The translations under genes were made by a program, and so were the position numbers. The notes under the pieces were generated by a model, which was not told the DNA's origin, searched no databases, and was given only the letters and a program-made list of their open reading frames with translations. From the NCBI GenBank assembly GCA_019638185.1, contig JAHBUH010000007.1, positions 141,287 to 205,286 on the forward strand: a DNA stretch of 64,000 nucleotides, read 5' to 3'. This document shows, one piece after another, positions 16,492 to 36,026 of the stretch (positions are counted from its first letter, which is position 1; each line of letters begins with the position of its first letter). This stretch comes from Leadbetterella sp. (lineage in GTDB: Bacteria; Bacteroidota; Bacteroidia; Cytophagales; Spirosomataceae).

Positions 16492-19400
16492 TCAGTTTTT
16501 AAATACCCTAAACGTTTTCTGCACCTGGCCTGACCGCACATTCAGCAGGTAAATGCCACTTTCCAGGCCCGACAGATCCAGCTTTTGCGGCAACACGGAT
16601 TCTTTTTCCGAAAGCATTTTCCCATCGGTGCTGAAGACGGTGATTTTATATTTTTCCGGGCTTTTTGTGGTGCTGCTGATGTTCAGGTAGTCAGCCGTGG
16701 GGTTAGGGTAGAAACTGAAGTGCAGGGGGAGGTTTTCGGAGGGGAGGAGAACGTTTTCCGGCTCCCGAACGCTATGGGCTAGATGCCACAGCTGGAGGCC
16801 GCTTTGGGACGTATGGGCAAAAACATATAGGTTATTTTTCAGAATAAAGGGTTTTCCGGGGGATGAGCCGTTGGGTCCTTTGTTAATATCATACGCCATC
16901 CGGGTTCCTTCTGAAGAGCCGTCGCTTTCCCAGATCTCGCTCCCTAAATCCTTATCTTTAGCGCTGAAATACCACAGATCGTTAAACCAGGTTCCATTCT
17001 GAATGGCCCCGTACGCGTCAGGAAGCCTTTCTACCCGGTTAGTTTTTTTATCAAAAGAGATCATTGAAATATCATCCCGGAAAAGAACCCTGTTTTCCAC
17101 GTCATGGATAACCGTGGTCAAGCGGGCATTTACCGGTGCTCCGTCCGGAATTCCGGGCAATGTGTAAAGCGTATTTTTTTCCGGATCAAAATAATGTATT
17201 TTCCCGGGATCGGAAACACCTTGAAAAACCGGGTTGTAATTATCCGATACAAAGAGCTCCTTCAGCTGGCCGGCTTCTGCCTGCATCCATCTTCTCCGGG
17301 TATGATCCAGGTTATCCACAAAGTATAAAAACTCCCCGTTTTTACTTTTTAAAAAATCCCCGCTTATATTTTTAAGACTGACTTTTAAGGAGTTACCATC
17401 CAGCACCCAAAGCTCCCTATTGGTAAGAGCCGTTAAATATACAAGTCCCCGATACGTTACTCCCCGGTCAAAATCCCGGTCACCCGAAAGCTTCACTGAC
17501 CTTCCGGTTAGCAGGTCTACATACAGATAATGGGTCCCGGAAAGCCGGTATAAAACTTCCCTGCCGGAAAGATCAGTGGTACGCTGGTAACCCTCTTCTG
17601 AGACCCGCGCCAGTTCTGTATTTCCGGATAAAAGCCTGATTGTTTTATTATCGGAATAAACGGCCTGATTAAATGCCGCTTTAATGATAAAGCCGTCAGA
17701 AGTGAGGGTTTCTATTTTTTTATACGGGTAGTCTGAATAGTAAACTTTCCGGCCTTCGGTAAACAGTATTCTCCCGCTTGTCAAAATATGGCTGAGTCTG
17801 AAATTACAGGACCCGCTAAATTCTGATACTTCCAGGGTCTCTTTATCCAGTATGTAAAAAGTACCGCATTCTTTGGCCAGGTAGATCTTATTTCCGGATA
17901 GCGCCTTCACCAGAGAAGTATCGCGGAGGTTGATCTCTCCCGGGCTGAATTTATCCGGGAATGCCAGCCTGCCCGTATGAATGTCCAGTAAGTAATACCA
18001 CCTCTCGCCGTTACCCTGCATAGCCTTCATGGAAATAATCACAGTGCCATGAACCGTTTGTGAGGTATAGGTGATGCTCTGATTCCGGGTGTGGGGTATT
18101 CCCGCAGGTAAGCCGATATGCCTGAGTTTTTCACCATCAAAAAGTGCAAATTCCGTTTCATTCACAAAAAACACACATTCCCTGTAAATCTGTGCCTGCA
18201 GGATGGCAGAACCTTCCCTGCTAAAGTTTTTCCGGATGGATTTGCTCTTATTCAGTACCCGGTTATATATCTTCAGGGAATCAGTGGTTTCTGCTATTAA
18301 AGTAGTGTGGTTTAACCGGGTGAACCTCCATTTATAATTCTCCACAAACAGGCTGTCGCCAAAAGTGCCGCTACGGGTATCGTAGAAAGTTACCTCCTTA
18401 CTGTTAGAGACCGGGAAAATGAAAATAGTATCGTGCTGTATTTCAAATGAATACCGGCCACTTCCTGAAAACGCCTCTTTAAAACGGTCGGGGAAGCTCC
18501 GGTGGCTGATCTCTTTCGTGACACCGTCCAGGCAGGAAAGCCGGATATCCCTGTTTTGAGAGTTGCCTTTTGTGGATATAAAGTAGAATTTATCCTTCAA
18601 TTCCAGGTAATCCGAATAATGTTCGAAAGACTGGGAAAGGGTTTTTTGGACAAGACCTCCCACAGAGCCGCTGAAGATCAGCGTACTTTCGTTATTTACC
18701 TGTTTAGTCACACGGATACTATCACTTTCTGCTGATGCCAGATAGAAAAAACGGGTAGCGTAAGAGGTAGAGTCATTGACGATATGGACTTTTCCGGAAG
18801 GTGTCTTACCGTTCATTCTTATCTTCCCGGTCTTAAGATTCCAGAGGTAGCTCCCTCCAGCTCCATTTAGCATCAGTATATCCTTGTCTTTCAAAGTGAT
18901 ATATAGAATTTCCCGCGTATTAATGCGGGTCTGAAATTCGTCGTCGTGTTCATCTACAAGAACCAGGCGGGAATCAGCCCCTGAAGGCCCTAAATGCTGA
19001 ATCAGCAGAGACCTGTCTACCCCTTTTTCAATATAATAGTGGGATTCTGCAAGCGTATCTGTTTTTGAATGGTCCTCCAGGTTGTATTTCAGCAAAGGGC
19101 TGGTGTCCGGCAGGGATATAACATGCATTACATAATGACATGCATACAGGTTTCCGCCATAGAACTCAAAAAGATTGAATTTTTCAGGGAAATCAAGCGT
19201 TTTTTCCAGCACTTTGGTCCGGCCGTTTAATTCCCACAAGGATCCGTTATTAATGAAGTAGACATTCCCCCGGTGAATATGGATTTTGGTATTGATATTA
19301 ATGGTCGGATCCGTCATCAGGCTGTCAAAAACAGCATGATCGTAAGACCACAAGGTGTTTTTATCGGACAGGGAATAGATTTTTCCGCCTGATTCCCCGA

Positions 19401-25073: not shown

Positions 25074-27356
25074 TCATATCCGTACTATCGCCTCTTCCAT
25101 ATTGTATATCATCTGGATGGTGTACATCAGTGCTACCGTTTTTTCATAATCTTTCACCGGGAGATCGCGGTACTCCCCTACTTTCAGGAGACCCGGTTTT
25201 TTCAGCTTCCGGAGTCGGGCGGTTTCCTGATCCCAATAGCCGGCCAGCACTTTCAGCTCCCGGCTGTCCGGTTCACGGCAAATGATCTTCCGGAATACCT
25301 CCCTGAGCACCTGGTCTGCGGGCCGGGAAGCCATTTCCTGGGCCAGCACGCGGGAGGCCTCCTGGATCACGGGATCGTTCAGCATCACCAGGGCCTGGAG
25401 GGGCGTGTTAGTAGCCAGGCGGGTCACTTCACACTGGTCGCGGTTACTGGCATCAAAGATCAGCATATTGGGCGGCGGTACCGTGCGCTTGATAAAGACG
25501 TACATCCCCCGCCGGTAAAGGTCAGTGCCGTCATCCTGCACGTAACGGGCCAGGCTGCCGCGGCCGGAAGTAGATTTCTCCCAGATGCCATCGGGCTGGT
25601 AGGGCTTAATGCTGGGTCCGCCGATCTCCGGGTTCAGCAGGCCGGAAGAAGACAGGGCCAGGTCACGCACCAGCTCGGCTTTCAGGCGGGTACGACTGCT
25701 ACGGGCCAGGTAGCGGTTTTGCGGGTCTTTGTCCAGGTGCTTCCGGGTCACTTTTGAGTCCTGGCGGTAGGTGGCCGAGGTCACCATCTTCCTGACCAGC
25801 CGTTTGATGTCCCAGTTATGTTCTCTAAAGTCCACGGCCAGCCAGTCCAGCAGCTCGGGATGCGAGGGCAGATCTCCCTGCATGCCGAAGTCACCCGTGG
25901 TGGCCACAATTCCCCGTCCGAAGAAATGCTCCCAAAGCCGGTTCACAAAAACCCGGGCGGTCAGGGGATTTTCCGGTGCAAACATCCATTTCACCAGGCC
26001 TTCGCGGTTACCGCCGTAGCGTGCTGCGCTAAAAGGCAGCACGGCCGCCGGCAGGCCTGCGGTAACTTCCGGGCCGGGGGCGTCGTAATTTCCCCGTTCC
26101 AGGAGGTAGGTTTTGCGCAGCCCTACCGAGTCTTTCATGACCATCACGTATACGTCAGCCGTATCTTTCTTATGGATAAAATTCAGGATGCCCCTGACCT
26201 CTTCCTGGCCGATTTTCAGGTTAGGCGGATCGGCAAACGAGGCATCAATGGTACCGAAAAGCCCCTTTTCCGGTACTTGGTTAAAGAAGGCGTAGGTGCT
26301 GAAATAGTCTTTCTGGCTGATGGGGTCAAACTTGTGGTCGTGGCATTTGGCGCACTCAAACGTCAGTGAGAGAAAGGCTTTTCCGAAGGTATTGGTCCGG
26401 TCTGTGACGTATTCGGAGCGGTACTCTTCGTCGATCACCCCGCCCTCCTGGGTGATTTTATGGTTCCGGTTAAAGCCGGTGGCCAGCAGGCTTTCGGTAT
26501 TCCGGTCTTTGATCAGGTCGCCGGCCAACTGGTAGGTCACAAATTTCCGGTAGGAATAATTCTGATTGAAGGCGTGGATCACCCAATCGCGCCAGGGCCA
26601 CATGGTCCGCAGGCCGTCGTCCTGGTAGCCATGCGAGTCCGCATAGCGGGCCACATCCATCCAGTCCAGGGCCATTCGCTCCCCGTAATGCTTACTTTTC
26701 AGCAACTCATCCACTATTTTTTCGAAGGCGTCAGTGCTCTTATCTTCCAGGAAACGGTCCTGCATTTCCACCGACGGCGGCAGGCCGGTCAGGTCCAGGC
26801 TCACCCGTTTCAGCAGGGCTTCCCGGCCGGCTTCTTCGGAGGGTTTTAAGCCGGCAGCCTGCATTTTGGGGTAAGTAAAATAGTCAATCTCGTTACGCAC
26901 CCAGTCTTCATCCGCCTCCGGAAGCGCCGTTTTCTGAGGCGGGATAAACGCCCAGTGCGGCTTATATTTGCCGCCCTGTTCTATCCATTTTTTGATGAGG
27001 CCTATTTCTTCTTCCGTGAGAGTGAGGTTAGCCTCCGCCGGCGGCATCCTTTGGGAGATATCTTTGGCGGTGATCCTCAAATAGATTTCTGATGTGGCCG
27101 GGCTGCCGGGTACGAGGGCGCGGGCATGGGGATTATCTTTTAAGGCGGCGTAGGCACCTTCCGGCGTGTCCAGTCGCAAGCCGGCTTCGCGCGTGTTAGC
27201 GTCCGGACCATGGCATTTGAAGCATTTATCCGAAAGTATGGGACGAATGTGGTAATTATAGTCTACTTCCGCGGAGCTGTCGGCCCGGTGGTTTCCCCGC
27301 TGGCAGCCCCATGCTGCCCAGCCGGTTAAGAGGAGTAAGAAGTACCTGATCCGCAT
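25074..27356 (-). CDS. DUF1549/DUF1553 lipoprotein with planctomycete cytochrome c domain
   Basis: A 760-residue protein with a lipoprotein signal (LLLLTGWAAWGC, lipid Cys at about residue 18). Residues about 33-125 form a PSCyt1 domain with the haem c motif CFKCH and a probable axial Met in SQRMPPAEANL. DUF1549 follows (about 150-360: RVSLDLTGLPPS, MDVARYADSHGYQDD, FECAKCHDHKFDPIS with a second CxxCH) and DUF1553 (about 450-700: PLTARVFVNRLWEHFFGRGI, DFGMQGDLPSHPELLDWLA). The catalytic role is unproven; the family is linked to polysaccharide-degrading or oxidising loci. First gene of the operon. The region upstream holds a palindromic repeat. Confidence 0.9.
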   Translation of the reverse strand: MRIRYFLLLLTGWAAWGCQRGNHRADSSAEVDYNYHIRPILSDKCFKCHGPDANTREAGLRLDTPEGAYAALKDNPHARALVPGSPATSEIYLRITAKDISQRMPPAEANLTLTEEEIGLIKKWIEQGGKYKPHWAFIPPQKTALPEADEDWVRNEIDYFTYPKMQAAGLKPSEEAGREALLKRVSLDLTGLPPSVEMQDRFLEDKSTDAFEKIVDELLKSKHYGERMALDWMDVARYADSHGYQDDGLRTMWPWRDWVIHAFNQNYSYRKFVTYQLAGDLIKDRNTESLLATGFNRNHKITQEGGVIDEEYRSEYVTDRTNTFGKAFLSLTFECAKCHDHKFDPISQKDYFSTYAFFNQVPEKGLFGTIDASFADPPNLKIGQEEVRGILNFIHKKDTADVYVMVMKDSVGLRKTYLLERGNYDAPGPEVTAGLPAAVLPFSAARYGGNREGLVKWMFAPENPLTARVFVNRLWEHFFGRGIVATTGDFGMQGDLPSHPELLDWLAVDFREHNWDIKRLVRKMVTSATYRQDSKVTRKHLDKDPQNRYLARSSRTRLKAELVRDLALSSSGLLNPEIGGPSIKPYQPDGIWEKSTSGRGSLARYVQDDGTDLYRRGMYVFIKRTVPPPNMLIFDASNRDQCEVTRLATNTPLQALVMLNDPVIQEASRVLAQEMASRPADQVLREVFRKIICREPDSRELKVLAGYWDQETARLRKLKKPGLLKVGEYRDLPVKDYEKTVALMYTIQMIYNMEEAIVRI

Positions 27357-27731
27357 GAAGTGAAAATGCCAGGCGATGAAGGTAGGAAAATATTTTTATA
27401 AATACACTGAATATTAATAAAAAATCTTTGTAAAAGGCAATTTGTCTTTCAGACGGACCTACTTTTCCGCATCGGCGGACCGTTTGTAAAAAAGTAGGCG
27501 GCAGCGGCCAACCGTAAAAAAACATTCACAAAGCGGTTTGCCGCCCGATAATGTCCTGACTAGCAGTCTGCCCTGAAAAATTTGATTACCAATATTTTAT
27601 AAACTTTCTCACTCTTTTGCCTATCAAATTATTCAAACGGACTATTTTGTGATATAAGGTACATTCTTATTTATTTCTCTCGGAATATGGTAATTTTCTG
27701 ATAGTTTTACCCTTGAAAAAACCTTTTTAGT
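27357..27731. other. 375-base divergent intergenic region
   Basis: It separates the DUF1553 operon from the DUF1080 gene. About 210 of its bases are one copy of the palindromic repeat (27455-27663). The remaining AT-rich flanks carry near-promoter motifs (for example TAATTTTC at about 27690) but none that matches consensus. No gene is seen; a short minus-strand frame over the repeat encodes no family. Confidence 0.7.
27455..27663. repeat. Nested-palindrome intergenic repeat, copy A
   Basis: Shares ordered blocks with copy B at 34999-35143: GGACCTACTTTT, AAAAAAGTAGGC, AAACATTCACAAA, ATAATGTCCT, CTGAAAA-TTTGATT, TTTTGCC, ATCAAATT, ACGGACTATTTTGTGA and ATAAGGTACA. CTGAAAAATTTGAT pairs imperfectly with ATCAAATTATTCAA, giving a long stem. 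This copy carries extra small palindromes (GCGGTTTGCCGC, GACTAGCAGTC) and a longer loop in the first hairpin. No coding potential. Confidence 0.78.
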
Positions 27732-28502
27732 ATGCGGTTATCCGGTTTGGTGACACTTATGCTGGTAGTGTGTTCGTGCAGTGCCACTAAAGAAAAAACG
27801 ATTTTTAATGGTAAGAACCTGGAGGGGTGGACGCCGAAGATTTATCATCATGTATATGGTGATAATTATGCGAATACGTTCCGGGTGGAGGATGGGCTCA
27901 TTAAGGTGCGGTATGATGGCTACGACCAGTTCAGGGAGCGCTACGGTCACTTGTTTTATAAGACGCCCTATTCGCATTTTCACCTGACGCTGGAGTATCG
28001 GTTTAGTGGTATCTGGCGGAAGGATGCCCCCTCATATACGCACCTGAATTCCGGGGTGATGTTTCATTCCCAGGACCCGGCTACTATCCTGAAGGAGCAG
28101 GACTGGCCCATTTCGGTGGAGATGCAGTTCCTGGCTGAAGAAAAGCCGGGCGTGCCCCGCCCTACCGGCAATATGTGCTCACCGGGTACCGACGTGGTTT
28201 ACCAGGGGCAGAAGTCGCCCAAACACTGTATCGATTCCCGTTCAAAAACCTATAAACCGGATGAATGGGTCAAAGCCGAGTTGATCGTTTACGGAGATTC
28301 CCTGGTGCAGCACCTCATTAACGGGGAAGTGGTGTTGGAATATACGAAACCCACTATAGGCGGTGGCGTGGTGAACGGCGCTGATCCGAAGATTTTTATC
28401 CCGGGAAAACCGCTGACCTCGGGTTATATCGGGCTGCAGAGCGAAGGCCAGGAAATTGATTTCCGGAATATCCGGATCCGGGATCTGAGTAAAAAGAAAT
28501 GA
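27732..28502 (+). CDS. DUF1080 lipoprotein (3-keto-disaccharide hydrolase-like)
   Basis: A 256-residue protein with a lipoprotein signal (LVTLMLVVCSC, lipid Cys at residue 15 or 17). The mature part is a single DUF1080 domain, a jelly-roll related to concanavalin-like lectins: TIFNGKNLEGWTPKIYHHVY, FHLTLEYRFSG, HLNSGVMFHSQDP, WPISVEMQFLAEE, VYGDSLVQHLINGEVVLEY and GYIGLQSEGQEIDFRNIRI. DUF1080 members include 3-keto-glycoside hydrolases that cleave C3-oxidised glycosides, the product of Gfo/Idh/MocA-type oxidation; that role here is inference. It is divergent from the DUF1553 operon, convergent with the NTF2-like gene, and outer-membrane or periplasm-facing. Confidence 0.87.
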   Translation: MRLSGLVTLMLVVCSCSATKEKTIFNGKNLEGWTPKIYHHVYGDNYANTFRVEDGLIKVRYDGYDQFRERYGHLFYKTPYSHFHLTLEYRFSGIWRKDAPSYTHLNSGVMFHSQDPATILKEQDWPISVEMQFLAEEKPGVPRPTGNMCSPGTDVVYQGQKSPKHCIDSRSKTYKPDEWVKAELIVYGDSLVQHLINGEVVLEYTKPTIGGGVVNGADPKIFIPGKPLTSGYIGLQSEGQEIDFRNIRIRDLSKKK

Positions 28503-28503
28503 C

Positions 28504-28558
28504 GGTGCCCGGAAAGGGACAGTTTATGGCAGTGGCGAACCGTCTCTTTCCAGGCACC
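28504..28558. terminator. Long stem-loop between convergent genes
   Basis: GGTGCC-C-GGAAAG-GGAC pairs with GTC-T-CTTTCC-A-GGCACC in one 17-step interrupted stem starting two bases after the DUF1080 stop. A second weaker hairpin (AAACCG...CGGTTT) lies at about 28571-28608. Probably bidirectional. Confidence 0.55.
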
Positions 28559-28628
28559 ATCGGTATTTCCAAACCGTGGGGCCTCTTTAGACAGCCCCTG
28601 CCGGTTTAACAACACCTTTTCAGATCAC

Positions 28629-29576
28629 CTACTTCTTCATCAGCATGCTCTCGCTGTAATACGCCGATTCGGAAATGATCTTTCCATTCTCGTCAAAACC
28701 CATGCTCAGGTGCATCGGCAGCATGATGGCCTTCTTATCTGACTTCCGCACCAGGTTTATTTTCCACCAGGAGAGCACTTCGCGGCCATTGTCCATCTCG
28801 TATTCCAGGTAATCCGGGTAACCTATCATATCGATGCTTTTAATCTCAAAAAGGGTTCGAAATTGCTCAATATTGGCCTTTTCTTCCGCTTTATTGCGTG
28901 TTTTCCCCCATTCCGTGTTAATGTCATAAAACTCGGCATTGTCGCCGTAGTAGCTCATGTACTGATCAATATCCCCTTTTTCCCAGGCGTACATGGCCTT
29001 GCGGGCGGTATTGACATTGGCATGGTGGTTATAGATGGTGCCGTTAGTGCGGTTAGAGAAGCTGGCAAAAATCTCATCCAGCACTTTCCCGTTAGCGTAA
29101 CTGATGATCCGTTTGATCTTACCTTCTTTGGTGACATAATAAATGCGGAAACCCGCCGCATCCAGCTTCACGCCTGTGGTCTTGTGCACCCCTTTCAGGA
29201 GTACCCAGTTTTGTACCACCACATCGCCGTTTTTGTTGTCTTTTTTGTATTCCAGGGCGTCAGGATAGGAACCGGGAATGGCCTCTATGGCAAAGTAGTC
29301 CAGCTGCCGGCTGTAATTCAGCAAAGTGCGCACATAGGTCAGCCTGTCTGATGACGGGAGCGCCGGGTCACTGGTGGTGCCGTTATACGCCTTAAAATCA
29401 TCGGTTAAAAGACCGGACATTTTTGCGGAATCGCCTTCTACCGTGGCTTTCTCAAAAGCGGTCACCACTTTAAGGGCGGGATGGTCTATGTAAACGGTGC
29501 CGTTCTCATTTTTCTGGGCTGAAACGGTCAATATCCCGGGAAGGACCAGGGCTAAAAAACATACTACTCTTTTCAT
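28629..29576 (-). CDS. Exported protein with two NTF2-like (SnoaL-type) domains
   Basis: A 315-residue protein with a signal peptide (MKRVVCFLALVLPGILTVSA). Two SnoaL/NTF2-like units follow in tandem: about residues 30-165 (VVTAFEKATVEGDSAKMSGL, LTDDFKAYNG) and about 185-310 (ARKAMYAWEKGDIDQYMSYY, GDNAEFYDINTEWGKTRNKA, MHLSMGFDENGKIISESAYY). Each has the helix-helix-sheet rhythm of a cone-shaped fold that binds small ligands or acts as a scaffold. No catalytic residue can be assigned. The product is expected in the periplasm. It is divergent from the hybrid sensor gene with 208 bases between, so the sensor may control it. Confidence 0.75.
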   Translation of the reverse strand: MKRVVCFLALVLPGILTVSAQKNENGTVYIDHPALKVVTAFEKATVEGDSAKMSGLLTDDFKAYNGTTSDPALPSSDRLTYVRTLLNYSRQLDYFAIEAIPGSYPDALEYKKDNKNGDVVVQNWVLLKGVHKTTGVKLDAAGFRIYYVTKEGKIKRIISYANGKVLDEIFASFSNRTNGTIYNHHANVNTARKAMYAWEKGDIDQYMSYYGDNAEFYDINTEWGKTRNKAEEKANIEQFRTLFEIKSIDMIGYPDYLEYEMDNGREVLSWWKINLVRKSDKKAIMLPMHLSMGFDENGKIISESAYYSESMLMKK

Positions 29577-29686
29577 AACAATGGTTTTTAATAGTTAAAA
29601 ATTATTACTCCCCAAAGGTCATATCCGACAAGCTCGTTTTGTGAGGAGATTCCCCGCTTCTGATGCTACATTCCGGTCTTTTTTAC

Positions 29687-29715
29687 CCGGACAAACCGCC
29701 CATGATCCGGACAAA
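29687..29715 (+). promoter_or_regulatory. Paired direct repeats upstream of the hybrid sensor gene
   Basis: CCGGACAAA occurs at 29687-29695 and 29707-29715, exactly 20 bases apart and so on the same helix face, 70-98 bases before the sensor ATG. Such paired sites suit an AraC-type DNA-binding dimer. Confidence 0.45.
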
Positions 29716-29784
29716 TCCGTCTTTTTACATGCGAAGCCCGAAAAAGTGTACCGGGTTATGTTATAAGCGGTTATCTTTACTGAT

Positions 29785-32700
29785 ATGATCAAGGGCCCCT
29801 ATATTCATTTCCTGTTCTTCATTTTCATCTGCGGAAATGTGGCTTTTGCACAGCCGGGTACGGGCTTTGAAGTCATCTCCACAGCACAGGGGCTTTCGCA
29901 GGGACTGATCAATGACATGATCCAGGACCGGGAGGGCTTCATCTGGATAGCTACCAAAGGCGGACTGAACCGCTACGACGGCTATAGCTTCAAGATCTTC
30001 ACGAACGATCCCCAGGATGCCCTCTCTATCAGCAGTAATTCCATCAGCACCCTGCTGGAAGACCGGATGGGGAGATTATGGATAGGTACCTACGATGGCG
30101 GCGTTAATGTTTATGATAAAAAGACCGGGCATTTTCTCCGGATCGGGCAAGGGTCCGGCCTCTCCAGTAACCGCATTGAATCTGACATGGCAGAACTGCC
30201 TGACGGACGCATCCTGGTCAGCCCGCAGGGAGGCCGCATCAATATTATTTCACTATCCGATGCCGGCAAGCCCCTTATCTCGTCATTAGATATTCCCGGA
30301 AACCGCAGCGCCCAATGGGTTTTAAAGGATGAAAAGGGCCTGATCTGGATCAAGTGCCCCGATCATACTATTTATACTTTTAACCCTGCCACTTCGGGGT
30401 TCGGGCTTTTATTTGACGGGCACCGTTTTACAGCACTCATCGAAAAAACCGGCCGGTTTGTTTCTGCAAAATTCAGCCAGTCGGTTAACACAAAGGTCAT
30501 TCCGGATATCCGGTCGGGGTTTATTGATTCCACCGGTAACCTGGTGGCCTCTTTCCTTACCGGAAAAGGAGGAAAGCTGCTGATGGATCATCGCTTTCCG
30601 CTGGAAACGGGTACTCTGGGCTGTAATATCTTCGATTTCAGTTCAATAAAAGCCGGAGACGATATGAATCCCGTTTATGCCCGTAACCTGAAAACGGAGG
30701 TCAGAGATCAAAATATCAAGTGTCTCCTGCTGGACCGGTCAGGGGTGCTGTGGGTAGGCACCATGGGGCATGGTATCTATAAATACCGGATCCGAAGCGA
30801 CCGTTTCTTCCCCCTGCTGCCCCATATGAGCATCCAGCGGCTAAGTACCTGGGATAAAGACAAGGTCTATGTACAGGGGTGGAGAACGGCGAAACTGCTC
30901 AATGCGCAGGGAGAAGAACTCCGAAGCCCGGTAGAAGCGGCGGTGAGCAATGCCCCGGCCTACATGAAAGTGCTGAAGGCCGCGAACGGCGACTACTGGA
31001 TGTACTGGAACGGGGTAAAAAAAATGGTCCGGTATACAGCAGACATGAAATTAGCCGCTACTTACCCGGAACCCGTAGATCCGACCATCACAGAACAGCT
31101 GCAACCCCTGATAGAAGACCGCCGGGGCCGGATATGGGTGTGCGGTGCCAATGGCTCCCTGGCCCAGGTAAATCCGGCTACCGGCAGGCTTTCAAAGTTT
31201 GTGATTAACACCGCACAATATACCGGCACCACTGCCCTTACCCAAACCAATGCCTTCTACGAAGACGGGCAGGGCATTTTCTGGCTGGGTACGGAACACG
31301 GTTTTGCCCGGCTGGAATTTCAGGATGATCAGACCATGCCCCACATAAAATGGTTTAAAAATATTCCCGGCGATCCCCGTTCTCTCAGCTATAATTATGT
31401 TTCCTGGTTTACCGATGACCCCCGGAATCCCGATTACCTATGGGTCTGCACTAAAGGCGGCGGCCTTAACCGTATCCAAAAATCTACCGGGGAATTTATT
31501 CATTACACAACGAAAAACGGGCTGCCTAACGACGTGGTATACGGCGTGCTGGCCGACAAAGCCGGCAACCTGTGGGGCAGTACCAATAAAGGGTTATTTT
31601 GCCTGCCGGCAGGGAACAAAAAAGAAATACGGGTCTTCACCACCAGCGATGGCCTGCAGGCCGACGAATTTAACACCAATGCTTTTACCGCCCTTCCGGA
31701 CGGCCACCTGGTGTTCGGCGGGGTAAACGGCCTCAATATTTTCAACCCTCAAAAAGTGCTGGCCTCCGGCTTTACCCCCGGGGTGTTTATCACCGGTATC
31801 CAGATAGGCAATAAAAACGTACTGCCTGGCGATGAAACCGGCGTACTGACCCAAACTATTGAGCAAACCTCCTCCATTACACTTCACTATTTGCAGGATG
31901 TACTGACCCTGGAATTCTCCTCCCTCGATTTTACGGCGCCCCTGCAGAATAAATACCGCTACCGCCTGATAGGTATCGATAAAGAATGGGTAGAGAGCGG
32001 CACCCGTCGTACGGCCACCTATGTTCACCTGCCCTCCGGCAACTACATTTTCAAGGTCCAGGGAAGCAACAGCCAGGGCATCTGGAGCGATCAGGTTGCC
32101 GAATTAAAAATAAAGGTATTGCCGCCCTGGTGGTTAAGCTGGTGGGCCTACGGGGTCTATGCCTTACTGGCCGCAGGGCTGATCCGGGCCTATCTCCGGT
32201 TTAATGTTAACAAAGCCCGGCTGCAGTCGCAACTGAACTACGAGCAGATCGAGGCCAAACGGGTAAAAGAGCTGGACACCATTAAAACCCAACTGTATAC
32301 CAATATCACCCACGAGTTCCGCACCCCGCTTACGGTGATCCTGGGCATGGCGCAGCAGGTGATGGACAAGCCCTCCGAACAGTTTGAAACCCGGATGGAG
32401 ATGATCGTGCGGAACGGCCGCAACCTGCTGAACCTGGTGAATCAGCTACTGGATCTTTCCAAGCTGGAAACCGGCAAAATGCAACTAAACGTATCAGGCG
32501 GGGACGTTATCGGGTTTCTGCGTTACGTGGTGGAGTCGTTCCAGTCGCTGGCCGAAAGCCAGCAGAAGCAACTGCATTTTTTAACGGACCTGGATGCGCT
32601 GTATATGAAGTATGACCGGGAAAAACTGCGGCAGATAGTAACTAACCTGCTCTCGAATGCCATAAAGTTCACCCCCGAGAAAGGCAATATCTATATCGGG

Positions 32701-33927
32701 GTATTGGAGAACCCGGATCCTGACGACAGCACCACCCTCCTTATCAAAGTAAAAGATACCGGCATAGGAATCCCCCCCGAAGAACTGCCCTATGTGTTTG
32801 ACCGTTTCTACCGGGCCGATAACAGTCACACCCGCAAAACCGAAGGTACGGGTATCGGCCTGGCCCTGACCAAGGAGCTGGTCAAGTTAATGGACGGCAC
32901 CATTACGGTAAAGAGCCCGCCGGCCGGGGCCCATAAAGGCAGCGAGTTTACGGTAGCGCTTGCCTTAAAAAGGGTGGAGCCCGGTGACCTGAAAAAAGGG
33001 ATAATTCCCGCGCCACAGACGCGCGTGAACTCCCCTGTAGCTGAAAAGGGGGCAGAGGCCACAGGCGAGTTGAATGAGAAGAAAAAAGAGGTGATTCCCC
33101 AGGTGCCACAGGCAGCCGCGAACCCTCCCCTGCCGGAACGGAAAGACGCCACACTCCCGCTGATCCTGCTGGTGGAAGATAACGCCGATGTGGTGGCATA
33201 CACGGCCTCCTGCCTGCCCGATTACCGGCTGGCCGTAGGTAAAGACGGCCGGGAGGGCCTGGAAATCGCCACCGACATTATTCCCGACCTGATCATCAGC
33301 GATGTCATGATGCCTTACATGGATGGTTTTGAGCTGGTGCACCGGCTGCGCCAGGATGAAAGTACCAGCCACGTCCCGGTGATCCTGCTCACCGCCAAAA
33401 CAGACATCGCCAGCAAGATAGAGGGCATACAGCAGGGCGCTGACGCCTACCTGGAGAAACCCTTTCACAAGGAAGAGCTGCAGGCGCGGATCAGGAAGCT
33501 GCTGGAAATGCGCCAAAATCTACAGCAGTATTACCTTAAAAAGGCCGGTTTGAGCAGTGATCCGGCCGTACCCGCCGGCACCGTTCCTGACCCCACCCTG
33601 GACCCGGAAAACAGCTTCGTGAAACGGGTACGCGAAGCCATAGAGCAGAATTTTACCGATGTAAATTTCACCGTGGAAAAACTGTGCAAGCTGGTTTTCA
33701 TGAGCCACTCCCAGCTGCACCGGAAGTTAGATGCCCTCACAGGCTGCTCCCCGAACCGCTTCATCCGGCTGATCCGCCTGAACAAAGCCAAAACGCTGCT
33801 GCTGAACCCGGAAAACAGCATCGCCGCAGCAGCCCTGGAGTGCGGCTACCAGGATCCGGGGTATTTTGCACGGGTGTTTAAGCAGGAGTTCGGGGTGACG
33901 CCGCAGGAGTGGAGAACCGGGAGATAG
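29785..33927 (+). CDS. Hybrid two-component system (sensor kinase, receiver, AraC output)
   Basis: A 1380-residue one-protein signalling system. After a signal peptide (about 1-22) come Reg_prop propeller repeats (SQGLINDMIQDREGFIWIAT, KGGLNRYDGYSF, GVLWVGTMGHGIYKY) to about residue 690, a Y_Y_Y domain (KYRYRLIGIDKEWVES), one membrane helix (about 782-803), HisKA with the phospho-His in NITHEFRTPLTVILG (about 843), HATPase (KLRQIVTNLLSNAIKFTPEK, DTGIGIPPEELPYVFDRFY), a proline-rich linker, a receiver with Asp in PDLIISDVMMPYMDGF (about 1173) and an AraC HTH (about 1276-1379). Periplasmic ligand, cytoplasmic DNA output. In Bacteroidota these often regulate glycan loci; targets here could be itself and the divergent NTF2-like gene. 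Confidence 0.95.
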   Translation: MIKGPYIHFLFFIFICGNVAFAQPGTGFEVISTAQGLSQGLINDMIQDREGFIWIATKGGLNRYDGYSFKIFTNDPQDALSISSNSISTLLEDRMGRLWIGTYDGGVNVYDKKTGHFLRIGQGSGLSSNRIESDMAELPDGRILVSPQGGRINIISLSDAGKPLISSLDIPGNRSAQWVLKDEKGLIWIKCPDHTIYTFNPATSGFGLLFDGHRFTALIEKTGRFVSAKFSQSVNTKVIPDIRSGFIDSTGNLVASFLTGKGGKLLMDHRFPLETGTLGCNIFDFSSIKAGDDMNPVYARNLKTEVRDQNIKCLLLDRSGVLWVGTMGHGIYKYRIRSDRFFPLLPHMSIQRLSTWDKDKVYVQGWRTAKLLNAQGEELRSPVEAAVSNAPAYMKVLKAANGDYWMYWNGVKKMVRYTADMKLAATYPEPVDPTITEQLQPLIEDRRGRIWVCGANGSLAQVNPATGRLSKFVINTAQYTGTTALTQTNAFYEDGQGIFWLGTEHGFARLEFQDDQTMPHIKWFKNIPGDPRSLSYNYVSWFTDDPRNPDYLWVCTKGGGLNRIQKSTGEFIHYTTKNGLPNDVVYGVLADKAGNLWGSTNKGLFCLPAGNKKEIRVFTTSDGLQADEFNTNAFTALPDGHLVFGGVNGLNIFNPQKVLASGFTPGVFITGIQIGNKNVLPGDETGVLTQTIEQTSSITLHYLQDVLTLEFSSLDFTAPLQNKYRYRLIGIDKEWVESGTRRTATYVHLPSGNYIFKVQGSNSQGIWSDQVAELKIKVLPPWWLSWWAYGVYALLAAGLIRAYLRFNVNKARLQSQLNYEQIEAKRVKELDTIKTQLYTNITHEFRTPLTVILGMAQQVMDKPSEQFETRMEMIVRNGRNLLNLVNQLLDLSKLETGKMQLNVSGGDVIGFLRYVVESFQSLAESQQKQLHFLTDLDALYMKYDREKLRQIVTNLLSNAIKFTPEKGNIYIGVLENPDPDDSTTLLIKVKDTGIGIPPEELPYVFDRFYRADNSHTRKTEGTGIGLALTKELVKLMDGTITVKSPPAGAHKGSEFTVALALKRVEPGDLKKGIIPAPQTRVNSPVAEKGAEATGELNEKKKEVIPQVPQAAANPPLPERKDATLPLILLVEDNADVVAYTASCLPDYRLAVGKDGREGLEIATDIIPDLIISDVMMPYMDGFELVHRLRQDESTSHVPVILLTAKTDIASKIEGIQQGADAYLEKPFHKEELQARIRKLLEMRQNLQQYYLKKAGLSSDPAVPAGTVPDPTLDPENSFVKRVREAIEQNFTDVNFTVEKLCKLVFMSHSQLHRKLDALTGCSPNRFIRLIRLNKAKTLLLNPENSIAAAALECGYQDPGYFARVFKQEFGVTPQEWRTGR

Positions 33928-33934
33928 TCTTCTA

Positions 33935-34015
33935 TTACTCTGACCAAACAGCCAGCTCGTAGCCGTCCGGGTCGGTAAATTGAAAACGTTTACCTCCGGG
34001 GAAACTATTTGTACA
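33935..34015 (-). pseudogene. VOC (glyoxalase-like) gene fossil, C-terminal end only
   Basis: Directly after the hemB stop, and in the same frame, the minus strand reads NSFPGGKRFQFTDPDGYELA followed by VWSE and TAA. The F.DPDG.E...W pattern is the classic C-terminus of VOC proteins. About 25 codons remain; the rest of the gene and any start are gone. It cannot make a functional protein. Confidence 0.7.
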
Positions 34016-34993
34016 TTACGCCCGATTCAGCAGCGCCGCCGCCTCCTTCGCAAAGTAGCTAAGGATAATGTCCGCGCCGGCCCGTTTCATGCTGATGAGC
34101 ATTTCCATCATGGCCTTGTCGCCGTCTATCCAACCGTTTTGGGCGGCGGCTTTGATCATGGCGTATTCGCCGGACACGTTGTAGGCGGATATGGGCAGGT
34201 CAAAATTATCCTTCAGGGTTTTGATCACGTCCAGGTAGGAAAACGCCGGTTTCACCATCAGGATATCGGCGCCTTCCGCATAGTCCAGTTCGGCCTCCAC
34301 CAGGGCTTCTTTTACATTGGCCGGGTTCATCTGGTAGGTTTTTTTATCGCCGAATTTAGGGGCAGATTCCAGGGCATCGCGGAAGGGTCCGTAAAACGCC
34401 GAGGCATATTTAGCCGTGTAGGCCATGATGCCTGTGCCGGTAAAGCCTTCTGCGTCCAGGGCGCGGCGTATGGCCACTACCCGGCCGTCCATCATGTCTG
34501 ACGGCCCGATGATGTCGGCACCGGCCCGGGCCTGGGCTACGGCCATTTTGACCAGCACTTCCACGGATTCGTCGTTCAGGATCTTCCCGTCTTTCACGAT
34601 GCCGTCATGGCCGTCAGAGCTGTAAGGATCCAGCGCCACATCCGTCATCACCACCAGTTCCGGGAATTTGTTTTTGATTTCGGAAAGGGCACGGAGGTAC
34701 AGGGTACCTTCTTTGATGCTTTCCGAGCCTACGGAATCTTTTTTGCTGTCCGGGTAATTGGGGAAAAGGCATATAGACCGGATGCCGTGCGCCACCACGT
34801 CTTCTATCTCCGTCAGCAGGGTATCCAATGAATACCGGAAAATGCCGGGCATGGAGCGGATGGCCACTTTTTCACCGCTTCCTTCCTGCACAAACATCGG
34901 GAAGATGAAATCGTTGACGGAAAGGGTGTTTTCAGCCACCATTTCGCGGAGGCCGGCGGATATACGGTTACGTCTGGGTCTTCTGGTTAACAT
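34016..34993 (-). CDS. hemB: Delta-aminolevulinic acid dehydratase (porphobilinogen synthase)
   Basis: A 325-residue cytosolic enzyme that condenses two 5-aminolevulinates into porphobilinogen in haem synthesis. It starts MLTRRPRRNRISAGLREMV and has DFIFPMFVQEG, the metal-loop region DVALDPYSSDGHDGIV, and both active-site lysines, in AYTAKYASAFYGPFR (about 200) and MVKPAFSYLD (about 252). The metal loop has Asp/Ser in place of the three zinc cysteines, which marks the Mg-dependent, zinc-independent class. The length is normal without the VOC fossil that follows in frame. The ATG lies 5 bases from the palindromic repeat, so its transcription signal must lie inside or beyond that element. Confidence 0.96.
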   Translation of the reverse strand: MLTRRPRRNRISAGLREMVAENTLSVNDFIFPMFVQEGSGEKVAIRSMPGIFRYSLDTLLTEIEDVVAHGIRSICLFPNYPDSKKDSVGSESIKEGTLYLRALSEIKNKFPELVVMTDVALDPYSSDGHDGIVKDGKILNDESVEVLVKMAVAQARAGADIIGPSDMMDGRVVAIRRALDAEGFTGTGIMAYTAKYASAFYGPFRDALESAPKFGDKKTYQMNPANVKEALVEAELDYAEGADILMVKPAFSYLDVIKTLKDNFDLPISAYNVSGEYAMIKAAAQNGWIDGDKAMMEMLISMKRAGADIILSYFAKEAAALLNRA

Positions 34994-34998
34994 ATTTT

Positions 34999-35143
34999 GG
35001 ACCTACTTTTTTCGAAAAAAGTAGGCAAAAAACATTCACAAAATAATGTCCTCCTGAAAATTTGATTTCCAAAGATTTATATATTTCCTTCCTTTTTGCC
35101 GATCAAATTTTTCAGACGGACTATTTTGTGAGGATAAGGTACA
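34999..35143. repeat. Nested-palindrome intergenic repeat, copy B
   Basis: A first hairpin, CCTACTTTTTTCGAAAAAAGTAGG (24 bases, 35002-35025, perfectly symmetric), is followed by a long stem: CACAAAATA (35037-35045) with TATTTTGTG (35122-35130), GTCC with GGAC, and CTGAAAA-TTTGAT with ATCAAATTTTTCAG. A 30-base AT-rich loop closes it. Copy A lies at 27455-27663. It has the look of a small mobile palindromic element. Confidence 0.78.
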
Positions 35144-35177
35144 ATTAGTATTTATGCTAAAGCTTCTTTACGGGGCT

Positions 35178-36026
35178 TTAGTCTTTTTTGAATAATCTGA
35201 ACTCCAGGGCCACGCGGGTGGTGTCGGGTTCGGCATTCACGGCCAGGCCATGGATCAGGTGACCGGAGAAGAAAAGTACTTCACCGTAGTCTACTTTGGC
35301 TCTTTCCAGCTGGCTGCTTCCGCCCCATTCTTTGATCATGCGTACGCGGTACCTGTTGCCCTCCACCACAGCGCCGTTATGCGTTCTGAGCACCTTGTTT
35401 TCGGTGAACTTGTGGCTTCCCGGGGCTATGGGCAGCGAGGAGTTTTCGGTCACGCCCGCTATGGGAATCCAGAGGTTAACAAACGGCGGGATGTAGTCGG
35501 CCTCATCTACCCGCTCGTACACGTCTTTGTGCGGCGGGTTATAGTCGTTAGAGCCGGGGCGGTTTATCCGTACTATAATGTGCAGCTCTTTACCGTCTTC
35601 GGGGTTAATATCGGTCAGGGCAAAGCCCAGGATCTTCTCGAATTTCGGCAAAATCTGTTTCACGGGGAAGTTAAAATCTTCCGCAAAAAGGTCACGGGTC
35701 TTACCCACTACCTTAAAATGGTCTTCCCGGCTGGTTACCACGTCATGGTAGCGCTCCAGGCTGAAATCTGCTGGCACTTCTATGCCCAGCTCGTTCCGGA
35801 TAATTTTAGCTACACTCTGGGTCAGACCCTGCTTTAAAGATGCAAATTCCTCCTCGCTCAGGAATTTTGCCGAGGTATGGCCTTCATCGTACCAGGGCTG
35901 GCTATAAACGATGTCGGTGTCTTCTCTTGACAGTCTCACTTCCTTGCCGTAATCAAACGGCGGGCAGTCTTTTACGGAGACTTCGTACTTTTTATCACCA
36001 ATCGTGTAGGACAGTATATCTTCCAT
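35178..36026 (-). CDS. Phytanoyl-CoA dioxygenase-like Fe(II)/2-oxoglutarate enzyme
   Basis: A 282-residue cytosolic protein. The C-terminal half is a double-stranded beta-helix: HIIVRINRPGSNDYNPPHKD gives the metal HxD (HKD), IPPFVNLWIPIAGVTENSSL and PIAPGSHKF are typical PhyH strands, and FFSGHLIHGLAVN gives the distal His, with Arg in TRVALEFRLF as the likely 2-oxoglutarate ligand. The N-terminal 100 residues are charged and not recognised. Substrate unknown; relatives hydroxylate small molecules. A strong Bacteroidota promoter overlapped by a Fur-like palindrome lies directly upstream, which suits an iron-dependent enzyme. It is downstream of the S9A gene on the same strand, with 94 bases between. 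Confidence 0.8.
   Translation of the reverse strand: MEDILSYTIGDKKYEVSVKDCPPFDYGKEVRLSREDTDIVYSQPWYDEGHTSAKFLSEEEFASLKQGLTQSVAKIIRNELGIEVPADFSLERYHDVVTSREDHFKVVGKTRDLFAEDFNFPVKQILPKFEKILGFALTDINPEDGKELHIIVRINRPGSNDYNPPHKDVYERVDEADYIPPFVNLWIPIAGVTENSSLPIAPGSHKFTENKVLRTHNGAVVEGNRYRVRMIKEWGGSSQLERAKVDYGEVLFFSGHLIHGLAVNAEPDTTRVALEFRLFKKD

What the first reader, a model, noticed from the sequence alone, without database searches (positions are those of the whole stretch)
27455..35143. Two-copy nested-palindrome intergenic element
The regions 27455-27663 and 34999-35143 share at least nine ordered blocks on the same strand, including a perfectly symmetric first hairpin and a long second stem bounded by CACAAAATA/TATTTTGTG. 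Loop and spacer sequences differ, and copy A contains extra small palindromes, while stems are preserved, which is selection for structure. Both copies lie directly upstream of genes (DUF1553/DUF1080, hemB). This looks like a MITE- or REP-like family that may carry transcription signals.
Basis: seen in the sequence. Interest (0 to 1): 0.7.

Follow-up and report, generated by a model that had tools for sequence, protein, structure and literature searches.

The report
Hairpin repeat family with plug-in micro-hairpins
The two matching stretches are members of a scattered family of short, hairpin-forming DNA repeats in Lacihabitans-like bacteria, one branch of which looks like a miniature transposon, and copies differ by tiny 14-16-base hairpins that are present or absent as whole units.

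Summary
In detail: copies A (about 27444-27675) and B (about 34999-35154) share 11 ordered exact blocks of 5 nt or more and belong to a real family. Copies lie at four loci of this genome, and matches occur in 10 of 10 genus genomes, 31 of 150 family genomes and 4 of 395 phylum genomes including the own. Stems covary strongly (27 of 40 pairs with double changes) without a consistent G-T preference, which points to DNA hairpins rather than RNA. In related species one subfamily is a MITE: 13-bp inverted repeats ACTAAAGTTTCGG and exact 5-7-bp target duplications in 8 of 15 rows (about 0.8 expected). A 1604-bp IS with an interrupted IS4-family transposase has the same ends. The window copies show no such ends. 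Unexpected: A's 'extra small palindromes' are 14-16-nt micro-hairpins, each with a site-specific sequence, present or absent as units between near-identical copies. Promoter or terminator function is not supported. New variant of a known kind.

The parts
27444..27675 (+). Copy A of the nested-palindrome core (module-loaded)
   Evidence: R1 match 27430-27672, 39.8 bits
27444..27458 (+). P0 hairpin of copy A: GTCT-TTC-AGAC + GGAC
   Evidence: Sequence; equated by position with GCCT-TGCC-AGGC-GGGC of relatives, my inference
27459..27498 (+). P1 stem of copy A (CTACTTTT / AAAAAAGTAGG) with module 1 in its apex
27467..27482 (+). Micro-hairpin module 1: CCGC-ATCG-GCGG-ACCG
27499..27514 (+). Micro-hairpin module 2: CGGC-AGCG-GCCA-ACCG
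   Evidence: 3 of 4 pairs
27526..27652 (+). P2 stem of copy A (TCACAAA... / ...TATTTTGTGA), 5' arm split by module 3
27533..27548 (+). Micro-hairpin module 3: GCGG-TTTG-CCGC-CCGA
   Evidence: 15 nt net
27558..27571 (+). Micro-hairpin module 4: GACTAGCAGTCTGC (14 nt)
27574..27635 (+). P3 stem (TGAAAAATTTGAT / ATCAAATTATTCA) and its variable loop
   Evidence: 92% complementary over 13 nt
34999..35154 (+). Copy B of the core (no modules, no P0)
   Evidence: R1 match 34977-35152, 128.4 bits
35002..35025 (+). P1 of copy B: CCTACTTTTTT-CG-AAAAAAGTAGG
35036..35131 (+). P2 of copy B: TCACAAAATA / TATTTTGTGA, enclosing GTCC/GGAC and P3

Best explanation
The two stretches are core copies of a dispersed, intergenic, AT-rich DNA-hairpin repeat family of Spirosomaceae. 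Shown: a conserved core (hairpins P0 and P1, nested stems P2/P3 around a variable loop) with strong covariation, in multiple copies, outside genes. Shown in related species: one subfamily is a complete MITE (13-bp TIR, 5-7-bp TSD), and an IS with an IS4-family DDE transposase (reading frame interrupted in the one copy seen) carries the same TIR. Inferred: that kind of transposase moves, or moved, the MITEs in trans, and core-only copies such as A and B are older copies whose ends have decayed, or members of a subtype with unrecognised ends. Shown: copies differ by 14-16-nt GC-rich micro-hairpins (stem 4, loop 3-4, stem 4, short tail, often NNCG + ACCG) at recurrent sites, each site with its own sequence; copy A has four of them, copy B none. 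Inferred: the stems act or are maintained at the DNA level (hairpin or cruciform, or templated correction of quasi-palindromes), and modules are mostly lost as units from a loaded ancestor and occasionally exchanged between copies.
For: Family and distribution. Covariation: 22 copies, 96.0% of 871 cells paired, 27 of 40 pairs with double changes, score 0.360 against 0.122 shuffled (0 of 500) and 0.025-0.070 when slid. DNA level: 2292 WC, 7 G-T, 22 A-C, 32 other cells in stems of 85 elements found with symmetric mismatch scoring; on A1 824 WC, 12 G-T, 7 A-C, 28 other. TIR in GCCT-type copies: left end (3 mismatches or fewer) in 14 of 36, all 14 at 64-66 nt from the core anchor; right in 10 of 36, five of them at 94-99 nt; both in 5. 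TSD: 8 of 15 rows exact at 5-7 bp, about 0.8 expected. IS: TIRs 13/13 and 12/13, 1604 bp, PF01609 E 6.6e-9, NF049925 (IS4 family) E 1.4e-52 and 8.9e-22 on two separate ORF pieces. Modules: 35 strict 16-mers in 28 of 105 elements (21,787 nt) against 14 in 800,000 nt of genome pieces; outside P3, 38 of 105 indels of 4 nt or more are 14-17 nt, inside P3 6 of 110; near-identical pairs with 4 vs 0 and 2 vs 0 modules.
Against: The window copies have no TIR or TSD, and the own genome has no exact TIR 13-mer. Outside G009 the exact 13-mer is no commoner than its reversed control (14 against 21 over the nine other genomes; with one mismatch 12 against 44 in G003 and 27 against 34 in G001), so there only the fixed place beside cores gives it meaning. 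Of the 10 right-hand TIR matches, three lie at 213 nt and one at 53 nt, off the usual place. L272 copy 1, not caught by the script, has no flanking duplication. The MITEs and the IS share only the TIR; the next 40 nt are not significantly alike. One IS copy was seen, frame interrupted, on a 4.76-kb contig; its NCBIfam scores (179 and 77 bits) are under the curated cut-off of 250. CGCC-type cores show neither left TIR (0 of 26) nor flanking duplication. Three CGCC-type copies sit between the same neighbour families in three species, so they are old. Site comparisons at two loci gave no clean junction, and at one a P0-like relic remains, i.e. deletion. On A1 G-T cells slightly outnumber A-C cells, against the direction.
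Confidence: 0.7

Rival explanations
1. A structured non-coding RNA or cis-regulatory RNA element, kept for its RNA fold.
For: Strong covariation; both strands fold well; left end towards a gene start in 67 of 86 cases; on A1 12 G-T against 7 A-C cells.
Against: G-T cells are rare (about 1%) and in the larger, symmetric count rarer than A-C on the modelled strand (7 against 22); no Rfam family; no common neighbour gene; presence differs between species at three compared sites.
Confidence: 0.17
2. REP/BIME-like repeat spread by a Y1 (HUH) TnpA/RAYT transposase acting on hairpins with a tetranucleotide tag.
For: Small hairpins with an adjacent conserved tetranucleotide (CGTC before P0 in many CGCC-type copies; ACCG after modules); inverted pairs of copies exist.
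Against: 0 Y1_Tnp matches in the own genome; none of 30 Y1_Tnp loci checked (of 53 places) carries a core (best E 0.67); P0 stems are 4-5 bp, not 8-9 as in CGTC REPs (PMC3733652 section 6); a TIR/TSD mode is seen for one subfamily.
Confidence: 0.08
3. The covariation is a mutational by-product: template-switch correction keeps quasi-palindromes perfect without selection for structure.
For: Double-sided Watson-Crick changes dominate (104 double-change cells), with no consistent G-T bias.
Against: The conserved unpaired motifs (CTC, AAC) and the invariant T/A tract of P1 need another cause; not tested further.
Confidence: 0.3
4. The module differences come from gene conversion between loaded and unloaded copies, not from gain or loss of modules as units.
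For: Modules keep a site-specific sequence across copies; the L171, L125 and L029 locus shows replacement of the inner core at one chromosomal site.
Against: In the L175 pair the copy-specific P2 arm and loop are kept while four modules differ; in L013/L115 modules on both sides of a conserved loop differ.
Confidence: 0.35

Closest known systems
Prokaryotic MITEs (review PMC10969869: section 5 and passages read)
   Same: Under 500 bp, intergenic, TIR of 13 bp, direct repeats in some copies, no gene inside, an IS with the same ends in a relative (subfamily in G009, G007, G001 and others)
   Different: Conserved covarying nested-hairpin core found also without TIRs across a family, and modular 14-16-nt micro-hairpins; window copies lack TIR/TSD
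ERIC/IRU, RUP, BOX-type intergenic palindromic repeats (recalled; only a search listing with abstract starts seen)
   Same: Imperfect palindromes of 100-200 bp between genes, with length variants (recalled)
   Different: Host group and, as far as recalled, the fixed geometry of the inserts; sequence similarity was not tested
GTAG/CGTC-tagged REPs (PMC3733652: abstract, section 6 and passages read)
   Same: Small hairpins beside a conserved tetranucleotide; CGTC precedes P0 in many copies
   Different: 20-40 bp units with 8-9-bp stems there; a 184-position core here; no RAYT association found
Yeast mitochondrial GC clusters (PMC4478555: abstract and part of the introduction seen)
   Same: Short GC-rich palindromic units scattered in DNA, present/absent between close relatives
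   Different: 16 nt here against 42 nt for GC42; bacterial; each site has its own sequence; nested inside another repeat

Membership tests
MITE (subfamily in relatives) | Short TIRs (about 4-30 bp) | tested here: met
   13 bp, perfect at both ends in several copies
MITE (window copies A and B) | Short TIRs (about 4-30 bp) | tested here: not met
   No end with 3 mismatches or fewer beside either copy; no exact 13-mer in the genome
MITE (subfamily in relatives) | Direct repeats from target duplication | tested here: met
   8 of 15 rows exact at 5-7 bp, about 0.8 expected; none found for CGCC-type cores
MITE (subfamily in relatives) | Under 500 bp, intergenic, no transposase gene | tested here: met
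   317-405 bp, leaving out the doubtful L128 (308) and L165 (278); 0 of 105 cores inside an ORF of 100 aa or more
MITE (subfamily in relatives) | Autonomous IS with the same ends that can act in trans | tested here: inconclusive
   One 1604-bp IS, IS4-family transposase in two ORF pieces, TIR 13/13 and 12/13; frame interrupted; mobilisation not testable here
REP/RAYT system | Associated Y1 transposase gene flanked by the repeats | tested here: not met
   0 in own genome; 30 of 53 genus places checked, no core
CGTC-tagged REP | CGTC tag plus 8-9-bp stem, loop 4-5, CCA-like tail | tested here: not met
   P0 has a 4-5-bp stem and GGG(C)-like tail
Rfam structured RNA family | Match above gathering score | tested here: not met
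   Only a tRNA in the window; one sub-threshold hit (E 0.28) in nine loci
ERIC/IRU | Homologous 127-bp consensus | not tested
   Named from recall and a search listing only

The most novel reading that the evidence does not exclude
The micro-hairpins are a plug-in module system: GC-rich 14-16-nt hairpins with a fixed geometry and a site-specific sequence that are gained or removed as whole units, several at once, from a bacterial intergenic element, by a mechanism acting on folded single-stranded DNA for which I know no described bacterial counterpart.
Probability: 0.25. Interest if true: 0.8.

Novelty: new variant of a known kind. Interest (0 to 1): 0.58.

Why it matters
It gives Spirosomaceae a structurally defined repeat family, not found described in my searches, with candidate ends, target duplications and a candidate transposase, so its movement can be tested. 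The multi-module presence/absence differences between near-identical copies make a specific question testable: can folded DNA lose (or gain) short hairpins precisely and together? That would be a bacterial parallel to GC-cluster turnover in yeast mitochondria.

Tried and rejected
Rfam: no family. Y1_Tnp partner: not supported. Plasmid and phage collections with one TIR-bearing element (L304): no match. Viral contigs were scanned once, with the DUF1553 protein, and gave nothing. Split or gene-bearing cores in held loci: of 66 left halves found by a pattern, 61 had a right half within 120 nt; in the other 5 the printed sequence shows a differently spelled right half, not a gene. Recurrent neighbour gene: the 14 largest groups shown have at most 6 members and look like ordinary gene families or orthologous loci. 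Idea that the 16-mers are one mobile micro-element inserted anywhere: weakened, because each site has its own sequence and counts in 880 kb of two genomes are low (2 and 4, not clearly above altered tails in the own genome). Idea of an autonomous copy at L079/L067: lone TIR-like ends; the ORF list of L079 shows nothing I take for a transposase, L067 was only looked at as sequence. L323 (765 nt between TIR-like ends) looks like chance. Derivation of the MITE from the IS by internal deletion: not supported beyond the TIR. Flanking duplications of 27 CGCC-type cores: none above control. Promoter/terminator scan: nothing above shuffles inside the copies.

Selections to know: A1 and model R1 use 22 copies chosen by me, mostly copies without modules (two, L005 and L015, have the P1-P2 junction module); copy B and the C1 copy are in A1, copies A and C18 are not. 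The 85- and 105-element sets are the better R1 matches in DNA I had fetched, some of them orthologous. skips nearest-neighbour pairs under 75% identity, places the P3 region crudely, and counts a few modules twice (elements in two pairs); one of the 38 indels is AT-rich. The 15 rows include two versions of one element (L294) and two doubtful ones (L128, L165); L272 copy 1 (no duplication) and L181_2577 and L257 (AAAATT on both sides) are not among them. Searches used Infernal's stricter filters and scored 17 and 6 candidates a genome, so absence there is weak evidence.
Full report
CHECK. Copies A and B are present at the stated places, on the same strand, with the stated stems and 11 ordered exact runs of 5 nt or more. 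A search of the whole genome with copy A gave six matches at four loci: A, B, C18 and C1. Copy B folds as single-stranded DNA far better than shuffles (z -5.9, 0 of 200), copy A less so (z -2.5, 5 of 200). Neighbouring genes by Pfam are DUF1549/DUF1553, a 3-keto-disaccharide hydrolase, ALAD (hemB) and PhyH; B begins just beside the hemB start codon.

FAMILY. A DNA search with copy B found matches in 12 of 59 genomes: 9 of the 10 genus genomes (not G008) and, weakly (E 4.6e-6 to 5.8e-4), 3 others. A covariance model R1 of 22 copies matches 10 of 10 genus genomes at E 0.01 or better, 31 of 150 family genomes in 10 of 36 genera, and 4 of 395 phylum genomes, one of them the window's own and the other three marginal (stricter filters). 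A gapped pattern in named genomes gave 28 stretches: 25 in Lacihabitans, Leadbetterella or the Bacteroidetes MAG LEAD1, 3 in unrelated organisms that look like chance. Contig lengths tie G003 to L. soyangensis KCTC23259 and G006 to Lacihabitans sp. CS3-21, which are not labelled MAGs.

STRUCTURE. The core is P0 (a 4-5-bp hairpin), P1 (an A/T hairpin), an A-run, P2 and P3 nested around a variable loop, and a right end AAGGAAC. On A1, 96.0% of 871 cells are paired, 27 of 40 pairs have double changes, and the covariation score is 0.360 against 0.122 in shuffles (0 of 500) and 0.025-0.070 when partners are slid. The structure was drawn partly from RNAalifold on the same alignment, so the slid control leans in its favour. 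With mismatches scored symmetrically over 85 elements I counted 2292 Watson-Crick, 7 G-T, 22 A-C and 32 other cells; on A1 the counts are 824, 12, 7 and 28. The two disagree in direction, and G-T is about 1% or less in both. An RNA kept for its fold should show a clear G-U excess on one strand; I see none. I read the stems as DNA-level palindromes, kept by selection or by templated correction; the data do not separate the two.

ENDS AND MOBILITY. In G009 complete elements appeared with 13-bp inverted ends ACTAAAGTTTCGG/CCGAAACTTTAGT, perfect in two of the three copies of L272 and 402-405 bp long; an equivalent of 319 bp lies in G007 and one of 400 bp in L278. Fifteen rows with both ends gave exact duplications of 5 bp (4), 6 bp (3) and 7 bp (1), with 0.57, 0.21 and 0.00 expected from re-paired flanks. 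In GCCT-type copies a left end with 3 mismatches or fewer occurs in 14 of 36, all at 64-66 nt from the core anchor; a right end in 10 of 36 (five at 94-99 nt, one at 87, three at 213, one at 53); both in 5. In CGCC-type copies it is left 0 of 26 and right 1 of 26; in the 43 others left 4, right 3, both 1. The exact 13-mer is enriched only in G009 (19 against 1 for its reversed control); over the other nine genomes it is 14 against 21, and the window genome has none. Allowing one mismatch in three genomes, one widely spaced pair of ends (1604 bp, G009:C247) encloses two ORF pieces that match an IS4-family transposase (NF049925 E 1.4e-52 and 8.9e-22, under that model's curated cut-off; PF01609 E 6.6e-9 for the longer piece), with a 5-6-bp flanking repeat AAAGA(T). 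Other widely spaced pairs, in G009:C23, G003:C173 and G001:C2, I took for coding sequence: two of the three had one end seen inside an ORF of 597 aa, the third was not fetched. The IS frame is interrupted, and no second copy of the coding part is in the loci held. An end in G002 resembles one IS end over 40 nt inside the TIR (0 of 500 shuffles as good), while MITE sequence inside the TIR does not clearly do so. So trans mobilisation is the best reading for the TIR subfamily. For window copies A and B it is inference by family membership only.

OLD OR NEW. At the L125 and L115 loci the element is present in some species and absent in others with well conserved flanks, but junctions are not clean, and at the L115 locus G006 and G009 keep a P0-like relic (by eye), so some absences are deletions. 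In G007 two copies, one a weak match of 50.8 bits, sit in a 951-nt gap that is about 55-160 nt in five relatives. Copies L117, L134 and L136 lie between the same neighbour families in three species.

MODULES. The 'extra small palindromes' of copy A are a general feature. In strict form (4-bp stem, NNCG loop, tail [ACT]CC[GC]) there are 35 in 28 of 105 elements (21,787 nt), against 9 in 83,753 nt of flanks, 6 of these by their sequence inside neighbouring copies, and 14 in 800,000 nt of genome pieces; of 15 altered loop/tail rules one other is high (33), which fits P0, and the rest are 0-4. Six sites recur: P1 apex, P1 3' arm, P1-P2 junction, P2 5' arm, beside CCTC, and P2 3' arm; each has its own sequence. 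The loaded G009 copies show further ones. Among nearest-neighbour pairs, 38 of 105 indels of at least 4 nt outside P3 are 14-17 nt long, peaking at 16, against 6 of 110 inside P3. The clearest cases: two tandem copies in G006 (253 of 278 aligned positions identical) with four modules against none; G009 against G002 (395 of 414) with two against none; G004 against G002 (363 of 403) with two against none (module lengths). Copy A against copy B in the window is the same phenomenon, with four modules against none. Direction, gain or loss, is not settled. Loss as units from a loaded ancestor seems simplest; conversion between copies is a serious rival.

CONTEXT. No core of 105 lies inside an ORF of 100 aa or more. 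Of 86 with both neighbours within 600 nt, the left end faces a gene start in 67 (binomial P 1.9e-7; crude ORF calls, copies not all independent). Scans show no terminator in either copy and promoter-like matches near the shuffled mean, with a sigma-70 rule that does not cover Bacteroidetes promoters. The bias is unexplained.

LITERATURE. Eight searches of the open library listed no paper that I recognised as describing this family; I saw listings and abstract starts, and subscription papers and preprints are not held. Read in part: PMC3733652 (abstract, section 6, passages), PMC10969869 (section 5, passages), PMC4478555 (abstract and part of the introduction).

VERDICT. Real, a repeat family with a MITE branch; the modular micro-hairpins are the surprising part and the least understood. 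On re-checking, the RNA rival was raised slightly (0.15 to 0.17) because softened the G-T argument.

Noticed in passing
L163 1895-2934 and L165 287-8770 (G008, 4,059,653-bp contig): Diverged cores repeated in head-to-tail arrays with units of roughly 280-350 bp, some with 16-nt inserts of the module type in the P1 3' arm.
   Followed up: partly
L327 890-1136 (G001:C14): A 247-nt element with nearly the same inverted ends (one mismatch each) but, by eye, without the nested core.
   Followed up: partly
L048 minus strand, position 17553 (G000:C1): A module-like 16-mer CCGC-AGCG-GCGG-ACCG beside another small inverted repeat of the own genome.
   Followed up: no
window 35156-35182 (+): Terminator-like hairpin with T-run just right of copy B; the only terminator-like site found in the two stretches scanned.
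   Followed up: no
window 25074-27356; L118, L126, L129: Proteins similar to the window's DUF1553 protein are neighbours of several cores in different genomes; it may be chance if the family is large.
   Followed up: no
L168 2434-2868, L169 3874-4293, L081 6066-6489: Pairs of cores lying close together in opposite orientation.
   Followed up: no
L070 2282, 3568, 4418 (G007): A repeated stretch contains CCGG-AACG-CCGG-ACCG three times; perhaps repeats that meet the module rule by chance.
   Followed up: no
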